Shown: one piece after another, positions 39,174 through 39,950 of the stretch
Position numbering within the stretch: the stretch's first letter is position 1
Layout of the letters: the number at the start of each line of letters is the position of its first letter
Source of the DNA: Lentisphaerota bacterium
GTDB taxonomy: Bacteria; Verrucomicrobiota; Lentisphaeria; Victivallales; Victivallaceae
Reading direction: 5' to 3'
Length of the DNA stretch: 64,000 bases
NCBI GenBank assembly: GCA_015061605.1
Contig: SUWH01000003.1
Span: 57,748-121,747, forward strand
Program-made: the position numbers and the translations under genes
Notes under the pieces: generated by a model
The model's database searches: none
What the model was told of the DNA's origin: nothing
The model's input: the letters and a program-made list of their open reading frames with translations, nothing else

Positions 39174-39950
39174 ATGAATAATTCAAATCCTTTTACCGCC
39201 GTACGGCGGGTGAAGCTGTGCTTCACCCTTATTGAATTGTTAATCGTAATTGCCATTATTGCCATTTTGGCGGCAATGCTGCTGCCCGCGCTGCAGAATG
39301 CCCGGGAACGCGGACGAGCCATCAGTTGTGCCAACAATCTTAAAACCATCGGTTTTGCTGCCCAAGCATATATAGATCAGATGAATGGTTATATGATGCC
39401 TCAGAAGACTCTGGTTGCCGGAGGAACTACTCTCAATCCATGGAATAATGAAGACACCTGGATGCATTTTTATTTGACCGGACGGAAAACGGATGAAGTT
39501 AAAACTTGGTTCGGTTATTCATCTGTCAACCGTTGTCCTTCTCGGCATGACAACGGGATTGGACGACGTAGTACTAACTTGCCGTATCCCTGGAGCTATG
39601 CTATCAACCGCCGTTTGCAGGGGTTACTGTGGGATGAAGCCCGGAAGATAGTCCGCCTTAAACGTCCGAGTTTTTACATCGGTTTTGTCGATTCTGAAAC
39701 CTACAATATTGACCGTGGCAGCTTCTGGAAAAACCGTCCGTTGGCCAGCGATACAGTGAACCGTATCGATTTCCGTCATCAGAAAGGAAATGCTTTTAAC
39801 GCTGCTCACGGAGACGGTCATGTTGAGACCTATTTCCGTCGTATTGATTGGTGGGAGAGTACAGCTAATAAATCAAATATCTACAATAAGTCGTCTTATG
39901 GTAAAATTGATGTATCACTCGCTGCCAATCGTGAAACAAATTGGAAATGA
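39174..39950 (+). CDS. type II secretion pseudopilin-like protein
   Basis: 258 aa. A short leader with RRVK is followed by FTLIELLIVIAIIAIL, the prepilin methylation/cleavage helix, then LLPALQNARERG. Near the C-terminus RHQKGNAFNAAHGDGHV is a loose version of the H-x9-DG processing motif. Residue -1 to the expected cleavage Phe is Cys, not the usual Gly. Proteins of this type are thought to be assembled by type II secretion/type IV pilus machinery; none of that machinery is in the window. It is immediately followed (14 nt) by a large secreted GH-like gene. AGGAGG-like GGAGG precedes the start. Confidence 0.82.
   Translation: MNNSNPFTAVRRVKLCFTLIELLIVIAIIAILAAMLLPALQNARERGRAISCANNLKTIGFAAQAYIDQMNGYMMPQKTLVAGGTTLNPWNNEDTWMHFYLTGRKTDEVKTWFGYSSVNRCPSRHDNGIGRRSTNLPYPWSYAINRRLQGLLWDEARKIVRLKRPSFYIGFVDSETYNIDRGSFWKNRPLASDTVNRIDFRHQKGNAFNAAHGDGHVETYFRRIDWWESTANKSNIYNKSSYGKIDVSLAANRETNWK
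39196..39228 (+). promoter_or_regulatory. palindrome plus inverted repeat in the pseudopilin leader
   Basis: CCGCCGTACGGCGG (39196-39209) is a perfect palindrome. It runs into GGGTGAAGC (39208-39216), which pairs with GCTTCACCC (39220-39228) around TGT. The right arm contains the codons for F-T of the prepilin motif. Equivalent structures occur in the other two pseudopilin genes. Confidence 0.7.

What the first reader, a model, noticed from the sequence alone, without database searches (positions are those of the whole stretch)
39196..39228. Covarying hairpin in the leader of every pseudopilin gene
All three pseudopilin genes (20872, 39174, 51645 on minus) carry a short palindrome and then an inverted repeat whose right arm is the codons for F-T of the prepilin motif. 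Arms are GGGTGAAGC/GCTTCACCC, GGGTGAAGCAG/CTGCTTCACCC and AGTAAAGCG/CGCTTTACT. The T-to-C changes in the right arm are matched by complementary changes in the left arm, and the palindrome also changes (CCGCCGTACGGCGG versus ACTCCGGAGT) while staying palindromic. Protein constraint alone would not keep the left arm complementary. The element may be an mRNA hairpin that controls pilin translation, a recombination site for exchanging pilin bodies, or a small mobile palindrome that inserts at pilin leaders.
Basis: partly seen in the sequence, partly recalled or inferred. Interest (0 to 1): 0.75.

Follow-up and report, generated by a model that had tools for sequence, protein, structure and literature searches.

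The report
Palindrome copy-number switch for pilin genes
In a group of bacteria known from metagenomes, many of them from animal guts, numerous pilin-like genes carry a short mirror-symmetric DNA unit just before the conserved pilin start; one copy leaves the gene in frame and two copies put it out of frame, so the unit likely works as a reversible on/off switch.

Summary
In this genome 34 of 75 FTLIELL sites carry the element: two abutting palindromes (P1, P2) around a shared arm. P2's right arm is the gene's own F-T-L codons. Sequences differ from gene to gene, yet pairing is near perfect (95.9% and 95.7% of cells; 19-33% with slid partners). Of 34 places in the genome with the P2 motif, 32 are pseudopilin leaders. 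It recurs in own-genus relatives and in two further genera of the same order. Little G-T wobble in the stem core, and P1 centres that are themselves palindromic, point to a DNA-level palindrome rather than a selected mRNA hairpin. New here: 23 sites, including the window's first gene, hold exactly two identical tandem units. In all 23 the start codon is out of frame with FTLIELL, and one unit fewer puts it in frame. Public proteins show one-unit, in-frame leaders: one with a 98% identical body and near-identical leader, one with the exact predicted leader on a 72% identical body. I read it as a likely phase-variation switch. Main rivals: an element merely tolerated in the leader, and, for the 12 fully self-complementary units, an assembly artefact. 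No reads or switching experiments were available.

The parts
20872..20874 (+). ATG with Shine-Dalgarno (AAGGAG) of the first pseudopilin gene; out of frame with FTLIELL as assembled
20895..20929 (+). palindrome unit, copy 1 (35 bp)
   Evidence: tandem detection, identical copies
20930..20964 (+). palindrome unit, copy 2 (35 bp), ending in the F-T-L codons of the gene
20958..21629 (+). FTLIELL pseudopilin body, open to its stop (223 aa)
39174..39950 (+). pseudopilin gene with a one-unit, in-frame leader (MNNSNPFTAVRRVKLC-FTLIELL), DUF1559
39196..39209 (+). P1 palindrome CCGCCGTACGGCGG
39208..39228 (+). P2 palindrome GGGTGAAGC-TGT-GCTTCACCC; right arm = F-T-L codons
50881..51645 (-). pseudopilin gene with a one-unit, in-frame leader (MKHQKTKSSAVRRVKQFC-FTLIELL), DUF1559
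51607..51620 (-). P1 palindrome CCGCCGTACGGCGG
51585..51608 (-). P2 palindrome GGGTGAAGCAG-TT-CTGCTTCACCC; right arm = F-T-L codons

Best explanation
At 34 of 75 FTLIELL sites of this genome a self-complementary DNA unit lies against the F-T-L codons of a pseudopilin gene, and the number of units likely switches the gene on (one unit, in frame) or off (two units, out of frame). Shown: the unit is P1-A'-P2, where A' is the reverse complement of the gene's own F-T-L codons. Its letters vary from gene to gene, but its symmetry is kept. The unit length, read directly in two-unit arrays and from the P1-P2 spacing elsewhere, is 29-40 bp, usually 34, and not a multiple of three in 197 of 198 sites. 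The 23 two-unit arrays found are out of frame from their start codon, and one unit fewer puts them in frame. Inferred: replication template switching or slippage at the palindromes makes the second unit and keeps the arms complementary; loss between the identical copies restores the gene. In-frame leaders would be tolerated because prepilin leaders are normally cut off (established biology; cleavage not tested here). Tens of such genes per genome would then vary independently in which pseudopilins are made.
For: Frame: two-unit sites have the Shine-Dalgarno ATG out of frame in 22 of 22 and in frame with one unit fewer in 22 of 22. The 23rd, L043, had no such ATG within 160 nt, but an upstream ATG comes into frame in the same way. 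One-unit sites: 159 in frame, 5 out (4 of the 5 wrong ATG calls by eye), 12 without such an ATG. The period is a multiple of 3 in 1 of 198 sites and 0 of 120 in the earlier subset. Alleles: P0036, body 98% identical to two-unit locus L036, has leader MTRKDPYSVHVHGQKLYS, one residue from the one-unit reading. P0052, body 72% identical to two-unit locus L001, has exactly the one-unit leader read from L001, MKSFLPDCSRVKHMC. P0003, 96% identical to the window's first pseudopilin, has a one-unit leader with a near-matching unit (SGEHRSKAYR against SGELRSKAYR) and a different start. Recency: the two copies are identical in 23 of 23, and bodies are open for at least 159 aa in 23 of 23. DNA-level symmetry. 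Fully self-complementary units are commoner in two-unit arrays (12 of 23) than at one-unit sites (30 of 176; Fisher p 0.0004), as expected if palindromy drives duplication. Specificity: 32 of 34 places with the P2 motif in the genome are pseudopilin leaders. Template switching making and maintaining perfect stems is described in PMC8794818 (abstract and opening text seen).
Against: No reads could be examined, and the named Lentisphaeria records are metagenome assemblies. Two-unit arrays are concentrated in this one genome (15 of 34 arrays against 8 of 165 elsewhere, p 3e-8; restricted to the motif by which the others were fetched it is 8 of 24, searches compared by hand), which may reflect assembly rather than biology. 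The excess of fully self-complementary units among two-unit arrays is also what a short-word assembly graph would produce. No array of three or more units was seen among 23, although slippage should make some. In 10 of 23 two-unit sites some ATG inside or near the array is in frame with FTLIELL; none had the better Shine-Dalgarno match, but 'off' may be leaky. The one-unit alleles are known only as predicted proteins. That periods avoid multiples of three may be common inheritance: 134 of 198 share period 34. No two-unit array was seen in the 20 loci from other genera (by eye). Expression, switching rate and leader cleavage are untested; in the window's three leaders the residue before F is R, C and C, not the usual Gly (usual Gly: recalled).
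Confidence: 0.57

Rival explanations
1. A selfish or passively spreading palindromic element, tolerated in prepilin leaders because the leader is cut off; the two-unit arrays are short-lived mutational noise without adaptive value.
For: Leader-only location. Homologues with conserved bodies carry different leaders or none (P0004-P0007, P0049-P0057). Larger cassettes with FTLIELLV on both sides recur in different genes and species. Leaders with one unit are in frame.
Against: No shared sequence beyond arms dictated by the host codons, so no evident mobile identity. 15 of 34 arrays in this genome are two-unit, much for mere noise. No Y1 transposase in this genome.
Confidence: 0.27
2. The two-unit arrays are assembly artefacts of palindromic one-unit loci; the element itself is real but does not switch.
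For: 12 of 23 two-unit units are exactly self-complementary, the type a short-word graph could double. Strong concentration in one genome. One array is interrupted by an N run (L012).
Against: 11 of 23 units are not self-complementary and both copies are identical, so in the same orientation, including the window's own (loops AA and TAC in both copies); by my reasoning a strand-switch path would invert one copy. P0048, the protein called from the L001 locus, is held on 10 contigs up to 84 kb while the contig here is 10.6 kb, and its start at an internal ATG suggests, without proving, two units there. Two-unit arrays occur in other genomes too: 8 sites.
Confidence: 0.12
3. An mRNA hairpin in the leader that controls pilin translation.
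For: Strong predicted RNA folds in all three window leaders (z -4.6, -8.4, -3.7). Variable sequence with kept pairing. At the foot of P1, pair 7, 20 of 132 cells are G-T and none A-C, though one side of that pair is nearly fixed and it shows no covariation.
Against: In the core, G-T is not favoured (5 cells against 7 A-C in 1476). P1 pairs through its centre (0.80 and 0.86 for the two central pairs). No Rfam family in the window. 41 of 75 sites lack it.
Confidence: 0.05
4. A recombination site at which leaders and pilin bodies are exchanged, with palindromes as hairpin sites for a recombinase or for RecA-driven exchange at FTLIELL.
For: Homologous bodies carry different leader types. The same cassette sits behind different recipients' FTLIELLV copies. 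A 34-bp period with inverted arms and a variable core recalls tyrosine-recombinase sites (recalled, not tested).
Against: P1 and P2 letters differ in nearly every gene (123 distinct combinations in 132 sites), so sites would rarely match one another. No enzyme was identified or searched for, apart from the Y1 family.
Confidence: 0.12
5. Ribosomes bypass the second unit, so two-unit genes are still expressed.
For: Identical copies and hairpins resemble bypass elements in outline (paper listing only; details recalled).
Against: The one-unit proteins in the collection indicate DNA copies without the second unit. No take-off or landing signal was tested.
Confidence: 0.03

Closest known systems
Tandem-repeat contingency loci (frame-shift phase variation; recalled, general knowledge)
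   Same: Tandem units early in a coding region; unit length not a multiple of three; unit number sets the reading frame; many loci per genome.
   Different: The unit is a self-complementary 29-40 bp palindrome pair without fixed sequence, built on the gene's own codons, and seen only as one or two copies.
Rickettsia palindromic elements (passages of PMC10969869 seen)
   Same: Palindromic DNA kept in frame inside protein-coding genes of many loci.
   Different: RPEs are about 150 bp families with conserved peptides in unrelated genes. Here the unit is about 34 bp, has no conserved letters beyond host codons, sits in pseudopilin leaders (32 of 34 places), and has a frame-breaking two-unit state.
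Coding palindromes in nematomorph mitochondrial genes (abstract seen, PMC6649704)
   Same: Perfect inverted repeats inside protein-coding sequence.
   Different: Those reach 284 bp and encode conserved parts of mitochondrial proteins; the abstract describes no copy-number frame effect.
Template-switch hairpins (abstract and opening text seen, PMC8794818)
   Same: A mechanism that can make and repair perfect stems in one event, without a wobble intermediate.
   Different: Described for RNA genes; here the product lies in one gene family's leader and sets its frame, and the mechanism is inferred.

Membership tests
Frame-shift phase-variable contingency locus | Tandem units in the coding region with length not divisible by three | tested here: met
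   23 arrays, periods 31, 32, 34, 35 and 38
Frame-shift phase-variable contingency locus | Unit number decides frame of the main product | tested here: met
   22 of 22 out with two units, 22 of 22 in with one; the 23rd likewise; 10 of 23 have some other in-frame ATG
Frame-shift phase-variable contingency locus | Different unit numbers at the same locus in close relatives | tested here: inconclusive
   Met at protein level for L036/P0036 (98% body); no nucleotide pair with different number in the 60 of 71 pairs printed
Frame-shift phase-variable contingency locus | Reversible high-rate switching in a clone | not testable with these tools
   needs culture or reads
Rickettsia palindromic element / MITE-like repeat | Palindromic DNA inserted in frame in coding genes | tested here: met
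   159 of 164 one-unit sites with a Shine-Dalgarno ATG are in frame
Rickettsia palindromic element / MITE-like repeat | Inserted in many unrelated genes | tested here: not met
   32 of 34 motif places are pseudopilin leaders
Rickettsia palindromic element / MITE-like repeat | Recognisable shared sequence family | tested here: not met
   59 distinct P1 centres and 78 distinct P2 centres in 132 sites
REP/BIME with RAYT transposase | Y1 (HUH) transposase in the genome | tested here: not met
   PF01797: none in this 88.7% complete assembly; found in 5 of 14 control genomes
Structured RNA regulator | Wobble-tolerant conserved stem or Rfam match | tested here: not met
   core stem without wobble excess, no Rfam match; P1 pair 7 is an exception with 20 G-T cells
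Tyrosine-recombinase site | Cognate recombinase acting at the site | not tested
   no family search for such recombinases was run

The most novel reading that the evidence does not exclude
A new kind of phase-variation element: a switch defined by symmetry instead of sequence. Each pseudopilin gene folds its own F-T-L codons into a palindrome unit that DNA template switching keeps perfect, rewrites and doubles. One unit is ON, two are OFF, so tens of pseudopilins per genome toggle independently.
Probability: 0.4. Interest if true: 0.88.

Novelty: new variant of a known kind. Interest (0 to 1): 0.77.

Why it matters
If true, these Lentisphaeria run a large combinatorial on/off repertoire of pseudopilins by a switch without a fixed sequence, which sequence-based searches for phase variation would miss. 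It would also be a natural system of about 200 loci (199 array sites) in which template switching at palindromes can be measured, and it warns that one-state metagenome assemblies may annotate live genes as broken or truncated.

Tried and rejected
Rfam scan of the window: no family. Y1 transposase search for a REP/RAYT reading: none. Viral contigs for a form of the P2 motif: 2 stretches, not examined; left end of the larger cassette: 0 in viral contigs, 1 place in the own genome with up to 2 mismatches, so no sign of phage carriage in what was searched. Search with the first gene's body in 34 same-genus genomes: matches at E up to 1e-20 in 3, the own genome included, the two others 42-45% identical, so no nucleotide-level allele pair was obtained. 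Among 71 nucleotide pairs of similar downstream DNA, the 60 printed showed no clean one-unit/two-unit pair; many were two FTLIELL copies of the same gene or shared a cassette. Literature, judged from titles and starts of abstracts: searches pairing the clade or gene family with the theme and phase variation with palindromes or pilins listed nothing on this element; some searches were for analogues. The library lacks most subscription journals.

Selection of rows: relatives' loci were mostly fetched because they match the P2 motif, so they do not estimate how common the array is. Of the 86 places, six that do not encode F-T were not fetched. Stem-conditioned counts were repeated without the condition; the 12 core pairs were chosen. 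The tandem hit in L012 came from an N run and was left out; L217 entered. The 20 loci were read by eye only (20 of 22 FTLIEL sites with P1 and P2 in one unit, none with two). The coded count of frame restoration (18 of 23) is lower because in five loci an internal ATG and the start ATG gave the same distance; one search uses the Shine-Dalgarno ATG instead. The P2 motif search has a backward-read control of 4 and 5 hits on the two strands, against 33 and 34.

Full report
What is there. The window holds three FTLIELL pseudopilin genes. Pfam finds DUF1559 in the second and third; N_methyl is above its cut-off only in the third, and the first has a marginal N_methyl match only (21.0 against 21.2 bits). 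Each has, between its ATG and the F-T-L codons, a palindrome P1 followed by an inverted repeat P2 whose right arm is the F-T-L codons. The first gene (ATG 20872) has two identical 35-bp units in tandem, 20895-20929 and 20930-20964; its ATG is therefore out of frame with the 223-aa body.

Genome-wide. The assembly has 2.56 Mb in 52 contigs, 88.7% complete. Two pattern searches gave 35 and 86 FTLIEL-like places, the first set within the second; six of the 86 that do not encode F-T were not fetched. After removing repeats, 75 FTLIELL sites were scored: 15 two-unit, 19 one-unit, 41 without the array. These are sites, not genes: some genes have two or three. The P2 motif GTRAAGS..SCTTYACY occurs at 34 places, 32 of them in pseudopilin leaders (matched by hand to the sites; backward-read control 4 and 5 hits). 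The exceptions are C14:68265, and C7:57232, which has the same letters as the array of contig C41 and was not examined further.

Symmetry, not sequence. In 132 distinct sites with an 8-base P2 core and period 34 there are 59 different P1 centres and 78 P2 centres; P1 pairs 3 and 4 are complementary in 132 of 132 with four pair types each. Paired cells are 0.959 (P2) and 0.957 (P1), against 0.20-0.29 and 0.19-0.33 with slid partners; 0 of 500 shuffles reach either value. These sites had been picked for stems, so I repeated the count on 153 sites without that condition: P1 pairs 0-6 are complementary at 0.80-0.97 against 0.31-0.63 expected; a 7-of-7 palindrome lies upstream in 114 of 153, against 8 of 98 control sites without the arm; and the left-arm purine matches the F-codon third base in 221 of 223 sites with the arm.

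DNA rather than RNA. Among 1476 core cells of 123 distinct combinations, 1453 are Watson-Crick, 5 G-T, 7 A-C and 11 other (core chosen). RNA selection should favour G-T over A-C. Against this, P1 pair 7, outside the core, has 20 G-T and no A-C cells of 132; the pair shows no covariation (0.74 against 0.74 expected). P1 is complementary to its very centre (0.80 for the central pair, 0.86 for the next), while P2 has an unpaired central pair (0.33 against 0.28 expected). RNA folds of the window leaders are nevertheless strong, as any such palindrome would give.

Distribution. The motif before FTLIEL is found in 26 of 387 genomes of the phylum sample: 16 of 23 of the own genus, 4 of 4 of genus g31 (same family), 3 of 3 of g40 (same order, another family), and one or two hits each in three others. 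In the named collection most of the 80 listed loci are Lentisphaeria/Lentisphaerae metagenome records, many labelled sheep, roe deer or yak gut. In 20 loci from g31 and g40, 20 of 22 FTLIEL sites show one unit and none two (by eye).

Frame. 23 sites have two units, copy number 2.0-2.2, never three. The copies are identical in 23 of 23 and bodies are open for at least 159 aa, many to the end of the fetched DNA. With a Shine-Dalgarno ATG as the start, two-unit sites are out of frame in 22 of 22 and in frame with one unit fewer in 22 of 22; the 23rd had no such ATG in reach but behaves alike with its upstream ATG. One-unit sites are in frame in 159 of 164, with 12 more having no such ATG. Sites without the array are in frame in 55 of 61, with 34 more having no such ATG. 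In 10 of the 23 two-unit sites some other ATG, within the array or nearby, is in frame, so leaky starts are possible. The period is a multiple of three in 1 of 198 sites, though most share period 34 by descent or geometry.

Alleles. P0036 matches the body of two-unit locus L036 at 98% and starts MTRKDPYSVHVHGQKLYS-FTLIELL, one residue from the one-unit reading of L036. P0052 has exactly the one-unit leader read from L001 on a 72% identical body. P0048, identical to the L001 body and held on 10 contigs up to 84 kb, starts at an internal ATG two codons before FTLIELL, as a gene caller would likely do with two units. P0003 (96% identical to the window's first body) has a one-unit leader. Only three such protein searches were possible.

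Could the doubling be an artefact? A short-word assembly graph could double a fully self-complementary unit, and 12 of 23 are of that type. The other 11, including the window's, are asymmetric with identical copies, which by my reasoning such a path would not give. Self-complementary units are over-represented in two-unit arrays (12 of 23 against 30 of 176, p 0.0004), which fits either palindrome-driven duplication or a partial artefact. The concentration of two-unit arrays in this genome (15 of 34 against 8 of 165, p 3e-8; 8 of 24 when restricted by hand to sites with the motif used for the others) is unexplained.

Mechanism. I commit to a phase switch by unit number, likely made by template switching or slippage at the palindromes. 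PMC8794818 (abstract and opening text) describes template switching as creating and repairing perfect stems in one event; this would explain changed letters with kept pairing and few wobble intermediates. That prepilin leaders are cleaved is general knowledge; in the window's leaders the residue before F is R, C and C, so cleavage is not shown.

What it is not. It is not filed as a Rickettsia palindromic element (one gene family, no shared sequence; passages of PMC10969869), nor as REP/RAYT (no Y1 transposase), nor as a structured RNA regulator. It works like a tandem-repeat contingency locus; the clonal switching that would complete membership is untested.

Noticed in passing
window 482-529: 48-nt hairpin (stem 22) belonging to a dispersed repeat family of this genome (36 match rows, both strands counted); related hairpins lie inside some pseudopilin leaders as part of inserts of about 180 nt.
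   Followed up: partly
L054:604-990, L077:1408-1760, L043 minus strand 991-618: Cassette arrays: three FTLIELLV copies in a row with different inserts between them (for example KRSHLCCD.., NTSISSLHFFKR.., SKACQICV..), as if each new insert left the recipient's FTLIELLV upstream.
   Followed up: partly
L005, L006, L038, L043, L044, L256:888-911: Inserts made of hairpins (279 nt in some), in several of them each followed by GCTTCA; the last hairpin uses the L-I-E codons as its right arm. In L256 both arms have changed together (TCAATCAGCG/CGCTGATTGA, against TCGATCAGCG/CGCTGATCGA), but in L038 the right arm alone has changed.
   Followed up: partly
window 21647-38075 and 48089-50869: Six large DUF4838 proteins among the ten neighbours tested, with AraC and LacI regulators nearby.
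   Followed up: no
L012 (G000:C21:1100-2300): A run of N lies between two copies of the unit, so the array seems to have broken the assembly there.
   Followed up: no
own genus: 7 of 23 same-genus genomes in that sample have no motif at all although others have up to 26; a comparison could point to a host factor.
   Followed up: no
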